Shown here piece after piece: positions 38,514-48,053 of a stretch of DNA of 64,000 nt (position 1 is its first letter; each line of letters begins with the position of its first letter). Source of the DNA: Fibrobacteria bacterium (GTDB lineage: Bacteria; Fibrobacterota; Fibrobacteria; UBA11236). Location: the NCBI GenBank assembly GCA_025360005.1, contig JANYDA010000052.1, positions 1 through 64,000 on the forward strand. Reading direction: 5' to 3'. Position numbers and translations under genes: made by a program. The notes below the pieces were generated by a model that made no database searches, was not told the origin of the DNA, and worked only from the letters and a program-made list of their open reading frames with translations.

Positions 38514-39309
38514 GTTTCGATTCACGCTCCCGCGAAGGAACGACCTGGGAATAAAACTCTTCTACTTCCCCATCGTTTCAACTCACGCCCCCGTGAGGAG
38601 GCGACCCATCCGCGCCCAGGACCAGGCGTTTTCAAGTGCGTTTCAACTCACGCCCCCGTGAGGAGGCGACCACCGATTATATTTTGCAGCTCTTGGCAGT
38701 AGGAAGTTTCAACTCACGCCCCCGTGAGGAGGCGACCCGGCCTGTGCGACAAAGCAAGGCGTGATCGAGGTTTCAACTCACGCCCCCGTGAGGAGGCGAC
38801 GCCTTCTTAGCCAGGTGGATTCCGTTTGGACTGTTTCAACTCACGCCCCCGTGAGGAGGCGACGCATATGGCTCGCTGGAGTACGATCTGACCTGGTTTC
38901 AACTCACGCCCCCGTGAGGAGGCGACACAGGCTGATCTCTCCGATGACCTGAAGCCGTATGTTTCAACTCACGCCCCCGTGAGGAGGCGACCCATGATTG
39001 TGCGGCAAGGAGTAGGATATAAAGTTTCAACTCACGCCCCCGTGAGGAGGCGACGCGTGTTGGCGGGGGCTTACCTCTGCTACACCGGTTTCAACTCACG
39101 CCCCCGTGAGGAGGCGACGTTGCGGCTGGGGAAATCATCCAGCAGGACGACGTTTCAACTCACGCCCCCGTGAGGAGGCGACCGCCACGCCATGCGCTTC
39201 GTGCCCGAGGAGAAGTTTCAACTCACGCCCCCGTGAGGAGGCGACTTTGGGCCGCTCGGAGGCCACAATTTTGGCCATGTTTCAACTCACGCCCCCGTGA
39301 GGAGGCGAC
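38514..39309 (-). CRISPR. Type I-C CRISPR array, 13 repeats and 12 spacers
   Basis: Repeats of 31 bp begin at 38514, 38575, 38640, 38706, 38770, 38833, 38896, 38961, 39024, 39088, 39152, 39215 and 39279. On the plus strand they begin GTTTCAACTCACG and end GAGGAGGCGAC. The crRNA sense is the minus strand, so that the repeat reads GTCGC...GAAAC, as in I-C systems. Twelve copies are identical. The leader-distal copy at 38514 has eight substitutions, all transitions. The stem CTCACG/CGTGAG around CCCC is preserved in it by one compensatory pair and one G-U wobble in RNA. Spacers are 32-35 bp, except the first (38545-38574), which is 30 bp. The leader-proximal end is at 39309. Confidence 0.97.
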
Positions 39310-39490
39310 CGCGTAGCATTATAATAACGGCAGAATAGAGGCATCCGAATAGTTAATCGCTACACGTCTTCAATTTTAAAAGAAGAGGATGGTTTTTGGA
39401 AGATAATATTATCAAAGAACGCGAATTTTCTTTGAAAATCGCATCGCTAGCCCCGGGTACAATCAATGGAGTTATAGGTTAGCGATAAGG
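39310..39490 (-). promoter_or_regulatory. CRISPR leader
   Basis: An AT-rich gene-free stretch between cas2 and the newest repeat, the normal position of an I-C leader. TATAAT in crRNA sense lies at 39323-39318, about eight bases from the first repeat, without a clear -35. A perfect 12-bp palindrome GATAATATTATC sits at 39402-39413, and CAAAGAA/TTCTTTG inverted arms follow at about 39413-39435. These could be sites for leader recognition by host factors, which is inference. Confidence 0.6.
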
Positions 39491-39781
39491 CTAGACCATG
39501 ATCAATGCACCCAGATCCGGTGGCACTTTCGCACCATGATGCTCCACTTTACGTTCCCAATTTGATCCCAAAAAATAGAATCGCAGACTATCCTCTTCCT
39601 TTTTCACAATATCGAAAAGGCGGGTTTTCAAAACTTCCCAACGTGCCGGATCAACATTGCATTCGAATACGGAATTCTGTACCCGAATCCCGAAATCCTC
39701 GCATGCTTTGGCCGTTTTCCTGAGACGCTTGCGGCCGGCTCGGCTTGTGGTCGAAACATCATAGCTGACCAATACCATCAT
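39491..39781 (-). CDS. cas2: CRISPR-associated endonuclease Cas2
   Basis: A 96-residue ferredoxin-like protein that forms the adaptation complex with Cas1. It opens MMVLVSYDVS, with the conserved Asp at position 8. FGIRVQNSVFECNVD and LRFYFLGSNWERKVEHHG are the typical Cas2 strands of I-C systems. The frame opens with TTG at 39793, but the GGAGG embedded there precedes ATG 39781 by five bases, so I used 39781 (39778 is possible). Two bases separate it from the cas1 stop. It is the last gene before the leader. Confidence 0.95.
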   Translation of the reverse strand: MMVLVSYDVSTTSRAGRKRLRKTAKACEDFGIRVQNSVFECNVDPARWEVLKTRLFDIVKKEEDSLRFYFLGSNWERKVEHHGAKVPPDLGALIMV

Positions 39782-39783
39782 CC

Positions 39784-40818
39784 TTACCTCCAAAGAAATG
39801 CAGGATAGAATTCGAGATCACCGCGAATGTGGCGTGCCAATAACCGGGCTTGGGCCAGAAAGCAAAGTCCGATCTCCAGCTCTTCCTCCAAAAACGGATG
39901 ATGTATGACTTCTCGTTTCCTTTTCTGGAGGGCCGCCAGAACTGTCTTTCTGGTTTCCACCGTCATCTCGACTTCCGAGGAAGGCTGAACGGTAAAGCCC
40001 TTAACATCCACCTGACGAAGGTTGACCAAACTCAAAACCAGCCGATCCGCAAACGAAGCGCGGAACTCCTCCATCATGTCCAAAGCCAAGGAAGGTCTCC
40101 CCGGTCGGTCCACGTGAAGGCATCCGACATAAGGATCCAGTCCCACGGACTCCAAAGCGGAACGCATATCCATTGCCAGGATGGAATAAACGAAAGACAG
40201 CAACGCATTTATCCGATCCAAAGGCGGCCGACGACTACGATTATGAAAGCGGAATTCAGCGCCAGAAACCAAAATCATTGCATCAAAAACGGAAAAATAC
40301 GCCTCAGCTGCATCTCCTTCAATTCCGCGAAGGGAATCTATGGCATCCGTTTTACGGGCCATGATTAGGCAATTTTCCATCCTAAGCAAAATGGATTCGA
40401 TTTCAGCAAGGCGAGATGACTCCTGGTGGTTGCGCGAGAAGCGCAGTAAGGTTGCCCGTTGGTTTTGGATCTTGGCCGCAACAAAACATCGGGCGATCTC
40501 CAAAGACCTCGGCTGCGAGTCCGCAATGCGGTATTGCTCGCGGCGCAGAAGTACATTTCCATGCACCGGTCCCGTCAAACGAGCCATAAAACGCCCATTC
40601 CCGTTGAGATACGAAACGGTCACTCCTTCGCGCGCGCAATGCTCGGTCAACTGAGGCGATACACCTATGTCAAACCCGAAACAGACGATTTCACCAATCG
40701 CATGCAATGGAAACTGCGCCACCTTTTCGCGATCTTTTCGAACCGTGATCGCTTCTCCATCTTTATGGAGATAGGCGCCTTCCAAAGTCATGTAGAGGGT
40801 ATTTCTCACATGTTTCAT
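39784..40818 (-). CDS. cas1: CRISPR-associated endonuclease Cas1
   Basis: The integrase of spacer acquisition; 344 residues, normal for type I-C. It starts MKHVRNTLYM, has GIEGDAAEAYF with the catalytic Glu of the E-G-x-A-A motif, and GCLHVDRPGRPSLALDMMEEFR carrying the conserved His and Asp. The start is ATG 40818, overlapping the cas4 stop (ATGA), which fits coupled translation. The longer frame to 40896 would lie inside cas4. Confidence 0.97.
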   Translation of the reverse strand: MKHVRNTLYMTLEGAYLHKDGEAITVRKDREKVAQFPLHAIGEIVCFGFDIGVSPQLTEHCAREGVTVSYLNGNGRFMARLTGPVHGNVLLRREQYRIADSQPRSLEIARCFVAAKIQNQRATLLRFSRNHQESSRLAEIESILLRMENCLIMARKTDAIDSLRGIEGDAAEAYFSVFDAMILVSGAEFRFHNRSRRPPLDRINALLSFVYSILAMDMRSALESVGLDPYVGCLHVDRPGRPSLALDMMEEFRASFADRLVLSLVNLRQVDVKGFTVQPSSEVEMTVETRKTVLAALQKRKREVIHHPFLEEELEIGLCFLAQARLLARHIRGDLEFYPAFLWR

Positions 40819-41474
40819 CCCAAAAGCTCCCTTCGATACTCCTTCATCTTGAAATCCGATGGGCTTTTGGGTTGGCAAATTCCAATTAAAGAGCATGATC
40901 TACAGCCGCGCATCCAAACGGCAGGTGGGAGCCGGCGCGAATGTATCATGGCGTCAAAGGCAGTAATCATTTCCAGCGTGCGGTTACGAAGAGCGTCATC
41001 AAATACCACTTCATCGCGACGACGGATCTTGCCATAGAAAATCGATCCCTCGGTTATTGTGGTATTAGTCATCTCTTCAAGGCACATGGCCTGCGCGCAA
41101 AGTTGGATCCTGTCGCAATCGTCCCCTTTCGGCTCCCCGCGCTTAAATTCCACCGGACGGATCACCCAATCACCGCTCAACCCAAGGAATTTCGCCGAGT
41201 CCGGAGCGTCTCCCACTTTTTCGACCTCAACCACGTCCAGGCGTCCATACAATTGCAACCTCAATGATTGGACCCGCACTCCCGAAAACTGCCGGATTCC
41301 CCGTCGGAATTCGCGATATCCTTCATCCACGCGCTCATGAAGCGTCCTGCCTTCGGCAGTGCGTTGATTTTCTTCCCAAGCTTGATCGAGATGAATAAGC
41401 CCAGCTTGGCGAGGGCAAAAGGCCATGTGTTGGAGGGCAGAAATAGGATGCAAGTCCTCGTCGTTAGGTTGCAT
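40815..41474 (-). CDS. cas4: CRISPR-associated exonuclease Cas4
   Basis: A RecB-family nuclease of 219 residues with an iron-sulfur cluster, trimming prespacers and helping select PAM-adjacent ones. Nuclease residues: D80 in GRLD, E109 and K111 in VEFKRG, Q124 after CDRIQ. Cluster cysteines: C20 (AFCPRQ), C191, C194 and C200 (CRSCSLIGIC). GAGG lies about six bases before ATG 41474. It overlaps cas1 by four bases and follows the Bro-N gene after 40 bp, so it is in the same operon. Confidence 0.96.
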   Translation of the reverse strand: MQPNDEDLHPISALQHMAFCPRQAGLIHLDQAWEENQRTAEGRTLHERVDEGYREFRRGIRQFSGVRVQSLRLQLYGRLDVVEVEKVGDAPDSAKFLGLSGDWVIRPVEFKRGEPKGDDCDRIQLCAQAMCLEEMTNTTITEGSIFYGKIRRRDEVVFDDALRNRTLEMITAFDAMIHSRRLPPAVWMRGCRSCSLIGICQPKSPSDFKMKEYRRELLG

Positions 41475-41514: not shown

Positions 41515-42348
41515 CTACTCCTTCGGCTTTGCCAAACGTCGCTTCGGTTTATCAGGAAGAAAATTCCCGGAGGACACTATTTTTCTTCCCGTCCGCCCCT
41601 CCAGTTCCTTGCGAGCTTTTCCGGCAACCGATCCGCCTTCACGCGCGGCTTCCCGACTTTCCACGAACCCCTTTGTGTCCCGGACTCTTGTAATCTCGGT
41701 CGTTGCAGCTTCACCTAACATGCTGAAAATCAATTCAAGATCGTTCATATGATCCCGAAGGTTTTCCCGCTTGATTCCCTTAACCCGCTTATACTCGGTG
41801 GGCGTAATACCAAAAGCCGCTTTGGAAATTTCCGCCGTCAGGATGGCGTAGTCGCGGTCTTCGCGGATTCCCCGATTCTTCCACTCATCGGTCAACTCCT
41901 CCCGGATGGTGATTGACCGCATGCGTTTTTCGACCCAGTCATCCGGATACCCCTTCGCTTTATATAATGCACGCGTGCGCTTGGTCGCCCTTTCCGGATC
42001 CTCGATTTCCTGAATCCGTTCATACCCAACCTTGGCCAACCATTTCTTGAATGGCTCGGCCTTTGGTGATGGGATACTCTGGATAATCCGAAAAATACCT
42101 TCCGTATTGGCGCATCCTAACATCTGGGGTCCGCCAAAAGTTTGAATAGTAAGGGGAGGTACAAGCTGTACCCACCCTTTATTCAATTCCGGGTCTCGTG
42201 AGCGCATTTTCTTGAGATACTGGCGAGGATCAACGCTATCAGTCAAAGCAGCCGCTACATCCTGAACGACGAAGAACCATTCCCCCTGATGCAGGGTTTT
42301 GCGGATTGATTTGCCTCGGAACAAGGCTATATGAACTGTATCTGTCAT
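41515..42348 (-). CDS. Bro-N / DinD-like protein embedded in the cas operon
   Basis: A 277-residue protein, not a standard I-C component. Residues 1-105 look like the BRO family N-terminal domain found in phage antirepressors: IALFRGKSIRKTLHQGEWFF, DVAAALTDSVDPRQYLKKMR, then MLGCANTEGIFRIIQSIPSP. Residues 160-220 (RDYAILTAEISKAAFGITPTEY, then NLRDHMNDLELIFSMLGEAA) resemble DinD, a DNA-damage-inducible protein. The basic C-terminus ends LAKPKE. It begins two bases after the cas7 stop and lies 40 bp before cas4, so it should be cotranscribed. Possible roles: a regulator of the system, an SOS-linked accessory or a passenger from a phage. Family assignment is from motif memory. Confidence 0.75.
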   Translation of the reverse strand: MTDTVHIALFRGKSIRKTLHQGEWFFVVQDVAAALTDSVDPRQYLKKMRSRDPELNKGWVQLVPPLTIQTFGGPQMLGCANTEGIFRIIQSIPSPKAEPFKKWLAKVGYERIQEIEDPERATKRTRALYKAKGYPDDWVEKRMRSITIREELTDEWKNRGIREDRDYAILTAEISKAAFGITPTEYKRVKGIKRENLRDHMNDLELIFSMLGEAATTEITRVRDTKGFVESREAAREGGSVAGKARKELEGRTGRKIVSSGNFLPDKPKRRLAKPKE

Positions 42349-42350
42349 AT

Positions 42351-43265
42351 TCAGACTTTTCGAATGATTTTTATGCCTTCCGGCAGGTTATTTTCATCGA
42401 CGGAAACCTCATAATCCCTGTAGGAACGGGCAGGGCCTTTGGAATCAGCCTTTCTTTTGATTTGCACCCGTTCAAACAAGGTATGAGCCGCAGCATTACC
42501 TAATGCTGTACCGTGTTCAAAAACGATCAAACCCCGAGTAGACATTAAGCCGCGCGCGGCTGAGCGATCGTGCTCAAACATATTTTGAAGCGCACTCCAG
42601 AAAAGGTTCAAGTCATCATTTGAAAAGCCGGTTTGATTTGCCAAGTGCGCCGAAATGAATCCATGAGAGCAATATAAACCATAGGGGATGGTGAATTTCC
42701 GACCCATAGTACGATTGTCACCACCTTGGGCCTCGGCTTCTTTCTCTGTTGCAACGGCCATACGGGTGATACTGTGTTCCAAAGTAATTACAGGCTCTAC
42801 GGAGCGCGCAAAAGTCATCTGGATTGGTCCTCGAACTTGACCCGCATTGGCACCGGTGCTCATCACTGCCCCAAATGTGCGAATGTCGAAATATGTTTTA
42901 CACATTTGCACACGCCCCTTTTCAACTTCGCTGCCTTGGGCCTTATTTTTTTCATTTCGCTTTTTGCCATCTTTCGTGTCTTGAGGCTCTTTGTCCAGAT
43001 CTACGCCAATCTCGTTATAAGCTCCAGCAATTTTCTGGTTGAGAATAGATTTCTCTTTAACGAAAATATCGTACGGCGATTTACCCTCTTTGGTCAGCAA
43101 TACATAATTTCTGACTTTTCTCTTGATACAAACATCGGTCACCAATCCCATGCCCGTTTCGGCATCCATGCGAGGCAGGTTTCCTGCATCAGGATCGCCG
43201 TTAGGATTTCCATCTTGAACGTCGAACAACAAGATGAAATCGTATCGCTTGGCAAGCTCGCTCAT
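42351..43265 (-). CDS. cas7c: Cascade backbone protein Cas7c (Csd2)
   Basis: Backbone subunit of the type I-C Cascade, wrapping the crRNA; 304 residues, the normal size. It has [27 protein letters not shown], the Csd2 signature, then [14 protein letters not shown]. Further along come [32 protein letters not shown] and [20 protein letters not shown], all typical of RAMP-type Cas7c. AGGAG lies five bases before ATG. A 22-bp gap separates it from cas8c. The Bro-N gene starts two bases after its stop. Confidence 0.97.
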
Positions 43266-43287: not shown

Positions 43288-44997
43288 TTATTCAGATTTA
43301 TCGGACTTGATGAAAAAAGCTTGCCGCTGATGATAATAGCCTACGGCAAATCGAGCCTGATCTTCCATGGAAAGATGTGCGGGAAGGTCAGGAAGTAAAC
43401 CATTAAAGATTTCACCTAATCTTTTTTCGTGGTTAGTCCGGAAAGCCGGATTTTCAAGCTTGGCCAAGTGATGGTTCTTCAGCTTCAGGAGTTGAGGAAA
43501 TACGCTTATGGGGTTGGAACTAGCAGCGCCATAGTAACGATCTCGAATGGAGGTATTGATCCCCGGTTGCGCGTCTTCTTGGATTTTTTCCAGTGCAGCA
43601 AACAATCGTCCAAGCCGATAGCCCGCATTTACATTAGCGTAGTCGAGAGCCACAATGAGTTCCTCCTCGGTGGTGGTTTTTTGATAGCGAAGTTGGCGAT
43701 TCAGGTATGCCTTAAGGATGGCCGCTTGAATGCGTCTTACGTCCTGTTTCGCCCGAATACGCCTGATGGTTTGCTGCAGAAGCGTGGCCGGATATGGAGT
43801 GCCCGCAAGAATTGATCGCATCACATTTCCAGCCAAATTTGGTGGGATGTTGTCGATCTTGTCTTCTAAAGCGATTGCGGATAGCAGAAAAAAAAGTGCG
43901 TAGCTACCTTTGTCGTTCTTTGGTTGGACTATTTCCAAATCCTGAAAGTGTTGGCGTATTTTTTCGGAAAGCCCTGCAACGGTTCCCGCATGCCAAAAAC
44001 GCACGGAAATTCTGGCTGCATTCGGGGACAACCCGAGTACGAAAAACGGAGTGGCATCGGCCGAAACTCCGGCGCCGGTGGTGGGACTTTTTAACAAGGC
44101 TTCGACAGCTTTTATCCCTTTGTCAGGGTCATCTTTGTCCACGCTCCAGAACGAAAAAAAATGTTCTTCAAAAGGAGTCTTATTCTGGGCCCAAAATACC
44201 GTGGTCGCATCACCGACTTGGACTTTGTTTTTTGAGTCCCGCCCCAGGAGATTGTTCAAAGCCGTGGTATAGGCAAATGTCGCATAATCACTTACTGGAG
44301 AATTGAAGTTTTGATCTTTACCATAAGAACGAAACGCTGGATGATTAAATGAAAGTAGTGAGGCCCCGAAGGACTGTGCGTCTCGCACGCCTTTTATCGA
44401 AGGATGAATTCGTGTGATGGGCGCCAAATTTCCAGTAACCAGGCAAAGATTTTTTTCAACGGAATCCTCCTGAAGTATGATGGATCCCGAAAGGCTTTCA
44501 CAAATAGATACTGATTCAGAACCGTCGATTCTAAAAACAACGTTTCCATTTGAATCGGAGATTTCCTTCCATAGATAGGCATCCTTAGAACTGTCTTCGA
44601 TTTGCTTGACTGGATTGGAATTGAGGAAATGCAAAAGAGCACTTCGATCCGGATGATCGGAAAGATTTTCTTTCACTCTGTCCCGAAATTTGGCATGTCG
44701 CTCGGACACATCATTTCTTGCGCGAGGGTTTGCACCCAATGCGTATTCAATGTTATCCCATAGAAGATTTGATTTAATGCCACTTGCTTTTTTCTCACCC
44801 GCAGGCACAAGGAAAGTACGTGGCCTCCTATCCTTTCCTTCTCCTTCCCTTGTATCCTCCAGCGCCTTAAAATGACCCTCGAGGTCTATTACCACAACAT
44901 AAGGAATTCCCTTCCACTCAAATCCTTCGGGTGCAGTGCCGCTTTCAGGATCTGCTGATTTTCTTTGGTAGTAGTCATATAGAGATTGCAAAATCAT
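43288..44997 (-). CDS. cas8c: Cascade large subunit Cas8c (Csd1)
   Basis: The large subunit of I-C Cascade, which recognises the PAM and recruits Cas3; 569 residues, as expected. It starts MILQSLYDYYQRK, has GFEWKGIPYVVVIDLEG, and later FVLGLSPNAARISVRFWHAG, the most conserved Csd1 block. The C-terminus has YRLGRLFAALEKIQEDAQPG. Internal translation in I-C systems can yield Cas11 from the 3' part of this gene; I did not identify a convincing internal start. ATG 44997 overlaps the cas5c stop (ATGA). Confidence 0.96.
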   Translation of the reverse strand: MILQSLYDYYQRKSADPESGTAPEGFEWKGIPYVVVIDLEGHFKALEDTREGEGKDRRPRTFLVPAGEKKASGIKSNLLWDNIEYALGANPRARNDVSERHAKFRDRVKENLSDHPDRSALLHFLNSNPVKQIEDSSKDAYLWKEISDSNGNVVFRIDGSESVSICESLSGSIILQEDSVEKNLCLVTGNLAPITRIHPSIKGVRDAQSFGASLLSFNHPAFRSYGKDQNFNSPVSDYATFAYTTALNNLLGRDSKNKVQVGDATTVFWAQNKTPFEEHFFSFWSVDKDDPDKGIKAVEALLKSPTTGAGVSADATPFFVLGLSPNAARISVRFWHAGTVAGLSEKIRQHFQDLEIVQPKNDKGSYALFFLLSAIALEDKIDNIPPNLAGNVMRSILAGTPYPATLLQQTIRRIRAKQDVRRIQAAILKAYLNRQLRYQKTTTEEELIVALDYANVNAGYRLGRLFAALEKIQEDAQPGINTSIRDRYYGAASSNPISVFPQLLKLKNHHLAKLENPAFRTNHEKRLGEIFNGLLPDLPAHLSMEDQARFAVGYYHQRQAFFIKSDKSE

Positions 44998-45728
44998 TTT
45001 CGCACCTCTTCGCTTTCCCAAGCAGGAACCTGGATCATTCCTCTACGCATAGTCGGCCTGAAAAAAGCCGGTTTGGGAAATTTTCCGTCCGTAAAATCCA
45101 AATCGTATAGCATAAATCCCAGATCTCGATCCTCCTGGAGAGCCGGGGCCTTCACTTGCTCGACCGCGATTTCATTTTCAGGAATGAATTTGAATGCGCA
45201 GCTGAATTCCCGACAGCCCAGATAAGGTTGATTGAAGCACTGTCCTTTAGATACCCGTCGCTCAAACATCGAATAATATTTTCCAGGATTTTCATCCTTG
45301 GCCCAATCAATGCGCTCAGCCGAATCCAATAAGGAATCAGAAACGGAATGAGTGGTTCGGGGTCTCTTGGGTGGAGGGATGAATTCAAGTTCGGCATGAA
45401 GCCTATAAGCCACGTCGCGTAGAAATAGCCCGGCCCTTTGCTGGCGCTCATCCTCAATAAAAATACCACCGCTTCCGGGTGAGGCCACTTTGCCCACTTC
45501 GTTTCGACGTACCGAAATCCAGCGAATCGGATTCAGCACTTCGACTTTTCGTATCTGCCACTTTATGGCTGGCTTCCAAAAAATCGCCGTGAAAATGGCC
45601 CGAGCCGCCGAAGGTGTAATGATATCGTAGCTGACACGCTCCACCTTCATTTCAGGCCGTGTAAAGCAAGCATAGTCACCCTTGACTTCTAGGCAAAAGA
45701 CTTTGTTAGTGTAGGTCAAAGAGAACAT
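44994..45728 (-). CDS. cas5c: CRISPR pre-crRNA endonuclease Cas5c
   Basis: In type I-C systems Cas5c replaces Cas6 and cuts the repeat RNA. The protein has 244 residues: KVFCLEVKGDYACFTRPEMKVERVSYDIITPSAARAI is the family N-terminus. NPIRWISVRRNEV and RDVAYRLHAELEF follow, and near the C-terminus YLGCREFSCAFKFI and DFTDGKFPKPAFFRPTMRRGMIQV. The ATG at 45728 directly abuts GGAG, an unusual zero spacing. TTG at 45719 is nine bases away and could be the true start. The gap to cas3 is 12 bp. Confidence 0.95.
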   Translation of the reverse strand: MFSLTYTNKVFCLEVKGDYACFTRPEMKVERVSYDIITPSAARAIFTAIFWKPAIKWQIRKVEVLNPIRWISVRRNEVGKVASPGSGGIFIEDERQQRAGLFLRDVAYRLHAELEFIPPPKRPRTTHSVSDSLLDSAERIDWAKDENPGKYYSMFERRVSKGQCFNQPYLGCREFSCAFKFIPENEIAVEQVKAPALQEDRDLGFMLYDLDFTDGKFPKPAFFRPTMRRGMIQVPAWESEEVRK

Positions 45729-45740
45729 CTCCTTTCAAAA

Positions 45741-48053
45741 TCAGCATATGAATTCGGTTCCCGTGTAGACGGGGCCATCAAGGCGTAGACCGAAGGTATC
45801 ATCATAAAGATTCGGCACGCATTGCGCCCATACTCCCAACAACCCTTCAGGCCCTTTTATTTCCTGGATCGCTCCCTGATCTCGCAAACTTTTCCAGATA
45901 CGATCAGGAACGTTAACGGTGTACCGTTGTAATCGACGCATTCTAGGTCTCGACGGACCGAGGCGGCGAATCTCTTCCAGAATACCCTTGCTGGAATACT
46001 TGCCGGACTCGAACCAGATGACTATGCCCCGACTTCCCTGCTGATCAATGAGTTTGTACCACACAGCGGCCGAACGGAATTGAAACTGCCCGGCTCCTGC
46101 ATTCGTCAGGAAATAGTCTTTGAATTTCCTCCACCCGAAGTCATTGACCCGTCCATAGAAAAATTTGAAATATCGCTGAAAAGATTCCGGTGCCAGCATG
46201 CTGGCCCAATCCGGCGATGACCGCAATACTTCGGCGCCGGCATCTTCCCCTTTACGCAACAGCCCAGCGGGAGCCGGTTTCGGTGGGTGGAATATCACTA
46301 CTTTACCTAGCCTGCCTTCAACATTTCGCCCTTCACGGTTGCAGCGACCAGCCGCCTGAGCAATACTGTCAAGACCCGCCATGGCCCTATAAACCACCGG
46401 AAAGTCAATGTCGACGCCGGCTTCCACAAGCTGTGTGCTTATAACCCTTAAGGGCTTATTTGTCCGCAACCCTGATTTTATTTCGGCAACCACGCGGGAA
46501 CGGTGTTCCCCACACATCAAAGCTGACAAATGCACAGGAGTTTCCACCGTATTTTTCCGAAGCGCTTCCCAAAGGTCCCGGCAGTCCTGACGTCTATTAA
46601 CGATGCACAATACTTGCATATGCTTGGCAAGCTCCAGGCTTAAACTGAGCCAATCCACTCTTTCCGGGCCCTGCATCTGTAAGGAGACCCTTTGAAGGCT
46701 ACGCGATAGTCCATCTCGATCTCGCACAATCTCACGCACATTTTGCAATCCCTGAAATTTCGCTTCACCGGATCCTATCCCTCCCTCAAGCGCAGGTTGG
46801 GTTGCGGTGCATAACACCACCGTGCAGCCGAAATGCGAAGTTAATCCCTTAAGAACCGAAAGAGTTGGTGCAAGCAATTCCGGAGGAAGCATCTGAGCCT
46901 CGTCCAAAATGATAACGGAATTGACGAGGCTATGAAGCTTCCTTGATTGGCTGGTACGAGAGGCGAAAATCGACTCGAACAACTGCACATTGGTGGTGAC
47001 CACAATAGGTGCGTCCCAATTCTCGGAGGCGAGGCGTCCTCTTGGAGTTTCCCTATCCGGATCAAGGTTACTATGATGTTCCAATATGTTGTCTGCTCCA
47101 AAGATTTCCGAAAATGTTTGTGCCGTTTGCTCAATGATGCTTGTATACGGAATGGCTACCACTATCCTGCGTTTTTTGTTTTTTAAAGCGTGGTCAAGAG
47201 CGAACGCCATGGAGGAAAGGGTTTTTCCGCCACCAGTTGGGACGGTAAGAGAGAAGAACCCGGGCTCTAACAAAGCGGCCTTTCGGCAATCTTCCAAAAC
47301 ATCCCGACGGATCTTATTAATTGGGAAATCGAAATTGCCTTCACGTTGGAGCCTGGTATCGCGCGCAATCAGACTTACGCTGAAAAGGGATTGTAAGGTC
47401 TCCAAATTTGTCAGGGGTTTCCGTAACTGGGGCTTCGTGGAATCCATAAATGCTTCCGTATCCAAAAAATCCGCGTCCACCAAACACGAAAAAAGCATAC
47501 GAATCCATAAGTGGGCATGCTCCTGGCTAAATGGCGGATTGGAGGTGGGAAGCGGAGCTTCTAAAATTTCACCCGGAATATTCGCACGTTTCGCCTCAAC
47601 AAGATGGGCGGGCTCCTTTAGCCGCTCCTCTAATCCTCTGCCTTCCGCTTCCTCCTTGATCCAGTCCGGCAATCCGGAGTGGTGTCCCGCAATGAGATAA
47701 GCCAATATCCTGCCGATGCCGGGATGGCGTTGAATGGCATGGATCGCACCCGCGGTGCTATGATCGACTTTCCCGGGAATGTTTTCCAAATGCGCATCGG
47801 CATTATAGCCACTGACAGAACGGATGTAGGATTGGAAATCGGATTTGTACTTCCCCAGGTCATGCCACAGACCCGCCAAACTGGCCCAGTCTCCGGACCC
47901 GAAGTGGGAAGCGGAAGCCCCTGATCGGCGAGCTACTTCTTGAAGGTGTTGAACGAGGCTATGTTCATCCCATTTTCCGTCGGTCATTTGGCGGACATGG
48001 GCAAGGTATTCTTCTGGCATCTCTCCCAAAACATAGCTCCTACCCTCTATCAT
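45741..48053 (-). CDS. cas3: CRISPR-associated nuclease-helicase Cas3
   Basis: The effector nuclease-helicase of type I systems, 770 residues. The N-terminal HD domain carries GLWHDLGKYKSDFQ and VDHSTAGA, then IAGHHSGLPDW. The helicase part has Walker A PTGGGKTLSS, DEAQ box ILDEAQMLP (DExH variant), TTNVQLFESIF, and motif VI AGRCNREGR. All active-site motifs look intact. A perfect inverted repeat spans the start codon. The gap to the WYL gene is 24 bp, with no terminator between, so they are probably cotranscribed. Confidence 0.97.
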   Translation of the reverse strand: MIEGRSYVLGEMPEEYLAHVRQMTDGKWDEHSLVQHLQEVARRSGASASHFGSGDWASLAGLWHDLGKYKSDFQSYIRSVSGYNADAHLENIPGKVDHSTAGAIHAIQRHPGIGRILAYLIAGHHSGLPDWIKEEAEGRGLEERLKEPAHLVEAKRANIPGEILEAPLPTSNPPFSQEHAHLWIRMLFSCLVDADFLDTEAFMDSTKPQLRKPLTNLETLQSLFSVSLIARDTRLQREGNFDFPINKIRRDVLEDCRKAALLEPGFFSLTVPTGGGKTLSSMAFALDHALKNKKRRIVVAIPYTSIIEQTAQTFSEIFGADNILEHHSNLDPDRETPRGRLASENWDAPIVVTTNVQLFESIFASRTSQSRKLHSLVNSVIILDEAQMLPPELLAPTLSVLKGLTSHFGCTVVLCTATQPALEGGIGSGEAKFQGLQNVREIVRDRDGLSRSLQRVSLQMQGPERVDWLSLSLELAKHMQVLCIVNRRQDCRDLWEALRKNTVETPVHLSALMCGEHRSRVVAEIKSGLRTNKPLRVISTQLVEAGVDIDFPVVYRAMAGLDSIAQAAGRCNREGRNVEGRLGKVVIFHPPKPAPAGLLRKGEDAGAEVLRSSPDWASMLAPESFQRYFKFFYGRVNDFGWRKFKDYFLTNAGAGQFQFRSAAVWYKLIDQQGSRGIVIWFESGKYSSKGILEEIRRLGPSRPRMRRLQRYTVNVPDRIWKSLRDQGAIQEIKGPEGLLGVWAQCVPNLYDDTFGLRLDGPVYTGTEFIC

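What the first reader, a model, noticed from the sequence alone, without database searches (positions are those of the whole stretch)
41515..42348. Bro-N/DinD-like gene placed inside a type I-C cas operon
Between cas7c and cas4 lies a 277-residue protein with a phage-antirepressor-type Bro-N domain and a DinD-like C-terminal part. Its start is two bases after the cas7 stop and cas4 follows after 40 bp, so it is cotranscribed with the system. This is not part of the described I-C set. It may couple CRISPR activity to DNA damage, regulate the operon, or counter phage regulators. Alternatively it may be a passenger acquired from a phage.
Basis: partly seen in the sequence, partly recalled or inferred. 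Interest (0 to 1): 0.7.

Follow-up and report, generated by a model that had tools for sequence, protein, structure and literature searches.

The report
DinD-type gene embedded in cas operon
A DNA-binding protein of the DinD family, already listed as an untested phage-defence candidate, sits in this CRISPR operon just before the spacer-acquisition genes, and close relatives have landed at the same junction repeatedly and independently in other bacteria, so it is a recurring accessory rather than a one-off passenger.

Summary
On the minus strand the operon reads WYL-cas3-cas5-cas8c-cas7-[277-aa gene]-cas4-cas1-cas2-array, with gaps of 2 and 40 bp around the gene. The protein has a Bro-N N-terminus and a DinD-like C-terminus. 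It matches the PADLOC candidate family PDC-S13 over its full length; E. coli DinD is in the same family. They sit mostly at the effector/adaptation boundary (cas7|cas4, cas4|cas1, or cas6e|cas1e in type I-E) or at the operon start. A single origin is rejected (AU p=1.4e-4). However, the gene is not CRISPR-specific: most copies are elsewhere, in restriction-modification operons and even housekeeping operons (guaB-guaA). The same junction also receives RhuM, Fic, DUF1016, four-helix-bundle and HEAT genes. It is therefore an embedding hotspot holding a nomadic, strongly conserved gene (dN/dS about 0.05). The predicted structure is closest to DdrC, a DNA-binding damage-response protein. Most likely function: an autonomous DNA-end or ssDNA-binding defence accessory driven by the cas promoter. 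A direct role in CRISPR is possible but unproven. A phage antirepressor passenger is disfavoured, since relatives are almost absent from viral collections.

The parts
41515..42348 (-). 277-aa Bro-N + DinD-type protein (PADLOC PDC-S13), embedded between cas7c and cas4
   Evidence: AlphaFold model mean pLDDT 89.6
42351..43265 (-). cas7c (Csd2); stop codon 2 bp before the embedded gene
   Evidence: NCBIfam TIGR02589 1.7e-126
43288..45021 (-). cas8c (Csd1)
   Evidence: NCBIfam TIGR01863 6.9e-169
44994..45728 (-). cas5c
   Evidence: NCBIfam TIGR01876 8.3e-75
45741..48053 (-). cas3 (HD nuclease + helicase)
   Evidence: NCBIfam TIGR01587/TIGR01596
48078..49049 (-). WYL-domain regulator at the head of the operon
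   Evidence: Pfam WYL 2.9e-16, WCX 1.2e-9
40815..41474 (-). cas4, 40 bp after the embedded gene
   Evidence: NCBIfam TIGR00372 9e-30
39784..40896 (-). cas1c (the listed ORF probably includes an upstream extension; the likely start overlaps the cas4 stop)
   Evidence: NCBIfam TIGR03640 1.6e-139
39491..39793 (-). cas2
   Evidence: NCBIfam TIGR01573 6.9e-18
38575..39310 (.). CRISPR array, 12 identical repeats GTTTCAACTCACGCCCCCGTGAGGAGGCGAC, spacing 63-66; one degenerate repeat near 38515

Best explanation
The gene is a member of the DinD / PDC-S13 family that was acquired at an embedding hotspot, the boundary between the effector module (cas7) and the adaptation module (cas4-cas1-cas2). It is expressed from the cas operon's promoter. 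The protein is a non-enzymatic DNA-binding protein, probably a dimer, with a Bro-N winged-helix-like head and a helical DinD body whose whole chain resembles DdrC. Most likely it works on its own as a defence or DNA-break-handling accessory: it binds single-stranded DNA or broken DNA ends (such as those made by Cas3 on an invader), holds or compacts them, and limits their RecA-dependent repair. Riding in a cas or RM operon gives it expression together with DNA-cutting defence. Shown: family membership, position, recurrence, independent insertions, purifying selection, fold similarity. Inferred: co-transcription, DNA-end binding, RecA antagonism, benefit against phage or plasmid.
For: Full-length PDC-S13 match 9e-109, with E. 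coli DinD in the same PADLOC family. PDC families come from a 'guilt-by-embedding' screen and most are experimentally untested (PMC12988326; PMC12255303). Recurrence in cas operons in I-C, I-C variants and I-E: 15 of 78 distinct loci in the similarity set, and 11 of the 30 copies fetched from 58 places in 296 Nitrospirota genomes. Chance expectation is about 0.3-0.5 of 58. A single CRISPR clade is rejected, p-AU 1.4e-4. The window's nearest relative is a same-genus copy, 81% identical, not in a cas operon. Hotspot: 40 of 64 surveyed I-C loci keep a tight cas7-cas4 junction and 18 carry an insert of over 400 bp. The inserts include other PADLOC candidate families: RhuM = PDC-S05, Fic = SoFic, HEAT_CxxC_PDDEXK, plus a 23S-IVP-like four-helix bundle. 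Fold: best PDB match by far is DdrC (7udi, E 7e-7, aligned over 241 columns). DdrC binds ss/dsDNA, protects it from nucleases, condenses it and circularises linear DNA (PMC5436757). DinD is listed among regulators of the RecA filament (PMC4457935, citing Uranga 2011). dN/dS 0.04-0.08 in and out of cas operons.
Against: The structural match to DdrC is moderate (TM 0.3-0.5, large rmsd, which I attribute to domain placement). Sequence similarity to DinD is confined to the C-terminal half and is weak in direct comparison (hhalign E 0.0013, probability 18%). Copies in housekeeping operons (guaB-guaA, frr-rseP, clpB, gyrA, der) show that expression with a defence system is not required. No anti-phage activity has been demonstrated for this family in any paper I could read.
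Confidence: 0.5

Rival explanations
1. CRISPR-coupled factor: the protein holds Cas3-generated or RecBCD-generated DNA ends and hands them to Cas4-Cas1-Cas2, or otherwise modulates spacer acquisition or self-damage.
For: It recurs directly upstream of the adaptation genes in two subtypes with unrelated effectors. Stop/start overlaps couple it to cas1c in L015, L032, L134 and to cas1e in L051, L067, L070, L129, L139. A largely CRISPR-linked part of the tree mixes I-C and I-E positions. The DdrC-like fold suggests DNA-end binding.
Against: Most family members are not in cas operons. The same junction also accepts unrelated genes, so position alone may reflect a permissive site. Most surveyed I-C loci lack it (40 of 64 have the tight junction). 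Some copies sit before cas3 rather than before the adaptation genes.
Confidence: 0.2
2. Neutral or selfish nomadic gene that spreads by inserting, with only its ribosome-binding site, into operon junctions and has no defence role.
For: Sequence identity drops at the ORF ends between close copies in different contexts. Copies occur in housekeeping operons, are co-oriented with neighbours within 60 bp in 53 of 63 cases, and spread across phyla.
Against: Strong purifying selection; a large excess in cas operons over chance; no transposase, integrase or terminal repeat was seen travelling with it in the flanks compared.
Confidence: 0.17
3. Guard or abortive-infection module (as proposed for embedded toxin-antitoxin genes): it harms the cell when the host system is inhibited or when DNA damage is extensive.
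For: Embedded beside known or suspected toxin families: Fic, PIN-like and BrnA-like genes occupy the same junctions.
Against: No toxin-like catalytic motif recognisable among the invariant residues; it is a single gene with no partner antitoxin.
Confidence: 0.07
4. Regulator of the cas operon, acting as an antirepressor, for instance on the WYL protein.
For: Bro-N occurs in phage antirepressors; phage repressor/antirepressor proteins are hit in structure search (E about 1e-5); a WYL gene heads the operon.
Against: Most copies are not in cas operons; among the 64 surveyed I-C loci most lack it; the family is almost absent from phages.
Confidence: 0.06

Closest known systems
DinD (E. coli, DNA-damage-inducible; PADLOC PDC-S13)
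   Same: Same PADLOC family; Bro-N N-terminus (Pfam 1.5e-7 for DinD) and matching C-terminal half with the KGxK..DHM..EL core; about 275 aa
   Different: Different sub-profile (PDLC04919 versus PDLC04920); low direct identity; in K-12 dinD is a single gene between yicC and yicG, not embedded in a defence operon
PADLOC PDC-S13 'guilt-by-embedding' candidate
   Same: Full-length profile match 9e-109; embedded in a defence operon
   Different: Here the host operon is CRISPR-Cas type I-C. Whether the original preprint (10.1101/2024.01.29.577857) reported CRISPR operons could not be checked because it is not held
DdrC of Deinococcus radiodurans
   Same: Closest solved fold over the whole chain (7udi/8u0g/7qvb, E about 1e-6)
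   Different: No sequence similarity detected; TM 0.3-0.5; DdrC is a radiation-response gene of Deinococcus (PMC5436757)
Phage Bro-N / Ant antirepressors
   Same: Bro-N domain; phrog anti-repressor families match the N-terminal part (2e-7)
   Different: DinD-type C-terminus; family almost absent from viral collections
hsdS-hsdR embedding site of type I RM (e.g. DarTG2 in EPEC, PMC12255303)
   Same: Defence-type genes recur between two modules of a defence operon
   Different: Here the site lies between the CRISPR effector and adaptation modules

Membership tests
PADLOC PDC-S13 / DinD family | Full-length match to the family profile | tested here: met
   PDLC04920 residues 1-269 of 277, 9e-109
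PADLOC PDC-S13 / DinD family | Bro-N N-terminal domain | tested here: met
   PF02498 9.4e-10 here, 1.5e-7 in E. coli DinD
DinD proper (NCBIfam equivalog) | Score above the curated NCBI cut-off | tested here: not met
   15.7 bits against a cut-off of 242: a relative, not DinD itself
PADLOC PDC-S13 / DinD family | Anti-phage activity or RecA-filament inhibition | not testable with these tools
   Needs experiment
Type I-C CRISPR-Cas operon | cas3-cas5c-cas8c-cas7c-cas4-cas1c-cas2 plus array | tested here: met
Type I-C CRISPR-Cas operon | Embedded gene is a conserved component of the subtype | tested here: not met
   40 of 64 surveyed I-C loci have a tight cas7-cas4 junction; intact family members at that junction in 3
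Phage Bro-N antirepressor | Found in phages / prophages | tested here: not met
   1 of 2.9 million viral contigs; 4 of 50,697 phage records, unannotated 5-7 kb contigs
DdrC | Same fold over the whole chain | tested here: inconclusive
   Foldseek E 7e-7, prob 1.00, TM 0.42/0.50 for the best chain
DdrC | Binds ssDNA and dsDNA, circularises linear DNA | not testable with these tools
   Needs purified protein

The most novel reading that the evidence does not exclude
A DdrC-like DNA-break-binding protein, recruited independently several times to the effector/adaptation boundary of type I-C and I-E operons, physically couples Cas3 cleavage to Cas4-Cas1-Cas2 spacer capture (or restrains RecA repair of cut targets), i.e. 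an unrecognised accessory of CRISPR adaptation.
Probability: 0.15. Interest if true: 0.8.

Novelty: new variant of a known kind. Interest (0 to 1): 0.52.

Why it matters
It moves a candidate defence family (DinD / PDC-S13, of which E. coli DinD is a member) from 'near restriction systems' to a recurrent resident of CRISPR operons. It also identifies the cas effector/adaptation junction as an embedding hotspot with the same cargo families. The DdrC-like fold gives a concrete, testable idea of what the family does with DNA. If a CRISPR coupling were shown, it would add a new accessory to spacer acquisition in two common subtypes.

Tried and rejected
phmmer against PDB with the single protein: nothing at E up to 10. 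Profile search against PDB gave only flavivirus NS5 matches at E 0.02-0.05 over 65 residues; read as chance. Looked for a mobile element carrying the gene by comparing flanks of close copies: identity falls at the ORF ends wherever the contexts differ, and no shared repeat or transposase was seen; a dedicated terminal-repeat search was not run. 'Chance insertion' rejected by independent recurrence. 'Phage passenger' rejected by rarity in viral collections. Plasmid spread: only 9 plasmid records. Paper searches for Bro-N or DinD with CRISPR found no report of this arrangement; the key preprint and most subscription papers are not held.

Full report
OBSERVATION. The gene is real but lies on the minus strand. 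The operon runs from 49049 down to 39491: WYL regulator, cas3, cas5c, cas8c, cas7c, the 277-aa gene (42348-41515), cas4, cas1c, cas2, then a 12-repeat array. The gene starts 2 bp after the cas7 stop and ends 40 bp before cas4, leaving no intergenic room for a promoter of its own. Co-transcription is inferred from this.

WHAT THE PROTEIN IS. Pfam sees only Bro-N (residues 16-106, 9.4e-10). PADLOC places the whole protein in candidate defence family PDC-S13 (9e-109), and PHROG 15286 also covers it (1.4e-84). E. coli DinD belongs to the same PADLOC family through a sister profile (2.4e-121) and matches the window's own profile over the C-terminal half (2.2e-16). Invariant residues are mostly aromatic, basic and structural, with no recognisable nuclease or other catalytic signature (inference). 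An AlphaFold model from 103 relatives has mean pLDDT 89.6. Its only significant PDB matches are crystal forms of DdrC from Deinococcus radiodurans (E 7e-7 to 5e-5, whole chain, TM 0.3-0.5). DdrC binds single- and double-stranded DNA, protects it from nucleases, condenses it and circularises linear DNA (PMC5436757). DinD is listed among proteins that regulate the RecA filament (PMC4457935). In the viral structure library, Bro-N/KilA-N/repressor proteins match at about 1e-5.

WHERE THE FAMILY OCCURS. Viral contigs gave one hit, phage records four small unannotated gut contigs, plasmids nine records. It is a cellular, horizontally spread family, not a phage family.

RECURRENCE IN CAS OPERONS. Among the 78 distinct loci with neighbours, 15 lie in type I cas operons: L005, L009, L015, L026, L032, L042, L044, L051, L054 (identical in L057), L056, L059, L061, L067, L070, L076. 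L051 is confirmed as I-E (Cas1e 2.4e-111, Cas6e 7.8e-34), as is the Cas6e of L070; L067 clusters with these Cas1e proteins, and L076 is read as I-E from the DNA after its stop codon, which encodes a Cas1e-like start. The divergent Cas8 of L009 is a Cas8c variant (PADLOC 1.8e-157). Among the window's own relatives, G128 (another family of the phylum) has cas7-gene-cas4, and G055 has a decayed copy beside cas4. To reduce the bias of a similarity-ranked list, 296 Nitrospirota genomes were sampled: 38 carry the family at 58 places. Of the 30 places fetched (one per genome, ranked by score), 11 are in cas operons, including three I-E loci with cas6e-gene-cas1e. With about 45 cas1 matches in those genomes, chance predicts 0.3-0.5 of 58; even if related copies reduce 11 to about 6 events, P is about 1e-5 or lower.

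INDEPENDENT ORIGINS. In a tree of 139 members, 27 are cas-linked. The label needs at least 9 changes and a single cas clade is rejected (p-AU 1.4e-4; the group was defined by context, the tree is a quick one). The window's copy pairs with an 81%-identical copy from the same genus that is not in a cas operon, so its insertion is separate from those in Nitrospirota, in G128 and in the L054/L056/L059 group. Close pairs have dN/dS of 0.04-0.08 in all contexts where dS could be estimated, so copies are maintained as functional protein.

A HOTSPOT, NOT A PRIVATE SITE. In 64 I-C loci from three phyla, 40 have cas7 and cas4 within 150 bp, 2 have 150-400 bp, 18 carry an insert over 400 bp, and 4 have no cas4 in reach. 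The inserts include: this family (L086, L176, L190 intact; a fragment in L202), a four-helix-bundle 23S-IVP-like protein (8 loci), RhuM (PDC-S05; L193, L203, and a RhuM-Fic fusion in L186), Fic (L195), HEAT_CxxC_PDDEXK (L200 by profile; L202 and L204 by resemblance), and an IS200-like transposase (L084). In 19 I-E loci of Nitrospirota the cas6e-cas1e junction holds this family in 3, DUF1016-type nucleases in 3, and small toxin-antitoxin-like genes in a few more (the last named by eye). Elsewhere the family sits in RM operons (hsdM in L004, hsdS in L010, SNF2-helicase and/or type IIG-like enzyme in L030, L031, L048, L050, L068) and even between or beside housekeeping genes: between guaB and guaA, between frr and rseP, or next to clpB, gyrA and der. 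When contexts differ, DNA identity ends at the ORF boundaries. The nomadic unit is essentially the ORF with its ribosome-binding site; how it moves is unknown.

INTERPRETATION. The most economical reading is a nomadic DinD/PDC-S13 gene repeatedly embedded at the effector/adaptation junction of type I operons, kept by selection, probably encoding a DNA-end or ssDNA-binding protein. Two levels should be kept apart. That it belongs to the DinD/PDC-S13 family is tested and met. That it works like DdrC (holding broken DNA) is an inference from fold similarity of moderate strength. That it is an integral CRISPR component is not supported as a general statement, because most I-C loci lack it and most copies are elsewhere. 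A CRISPR-coupled role in the loci that carry it remains open, and the repeated placement next to cas4/cas1 in two subtypes is the best argument for it.

NOVELTY AND LIMITS. Embedding of candidate defence genes in defence operons is a published idea, and PDC-S13 is a named candidate. I found no paper in the held library that reports this family in cas operons or the cas7-cas4 hotspot, but the originating preprint is not held, so priority cannot be claimed. The 80-locus list and the cas7 surveys are ranked by similarity to the window's proteins, so those percentages are not population frequencies. Gene calls in fetched loci are simple longest-ORF picks, and several neighbour names rest on reading the sequence rather than on a profile.

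Noticed in passing
L155, L162, L168, L172, L177, L178, L197, L199 (cas7-cas4 junction): A four-helix-bundle protein related to 23S rRNA intervening-sequence proteins is the commonest insert at the I-C cas7-cas4 junction (8 of 64 loci), also seen in L044, L061 and L132; the one tested matches no PADLOC model.
   Followed up: partly
L200:566-1435 (-); similar ORFs in L202, L204: A HEAT_CxxC_PD-DEXK protein (PADLOC PDLC01150, 9.8e-181) sits between cas7 and cas4; in L202 it follows a truncated copy of the Bro-N/DinD gene.
   Followed up: partly
L186:367-1344 (-): A RhuM N-terminus fused to a Fic domain lies at the same cas7-cas4 junction.
   Followed up: no
L005:2579-4804, L009:4819-6852, L015:1249-3354: An I-C-like operon with a long divergent Cas8 (677-741 aa); the L005 and L009 proteins match no NCBIfam model at 1e-5, and L009's matches only PADLOC Cas8c PDLC01562 strongly.
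   Followed up: partly
L030, L031, L048, L050, L068: The same gene lies between a PLD/SNF2 helicase and a type IIG-like methyltransferase, a two-gene defence-like pair with the family embedded in it.
   Followed up: partly
L029 and L052: The gene follows guaB (IMP dehydrogenase) in two Planctomycetota genomes; in L029 it lies between guaB and guaA.
   Followed up: partly
L100 (genome G055): A decayed copy (one internal TGA, residues 18-170 only) abuts cas4 in the window's own class, showing loss as well as gain at this site.
   Followed up: no
window 38515-38545: One degenerate CRISPR repeat precedes the 12 identical ones, at the end of the array away from the cas genes.
   Followed up: no
window 41515-42348 (model mc9cb9de9d949): The DinD family and Deinococcus DdrC may share a fold; no held paper was found that mentions a link.
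   Followed up: partly
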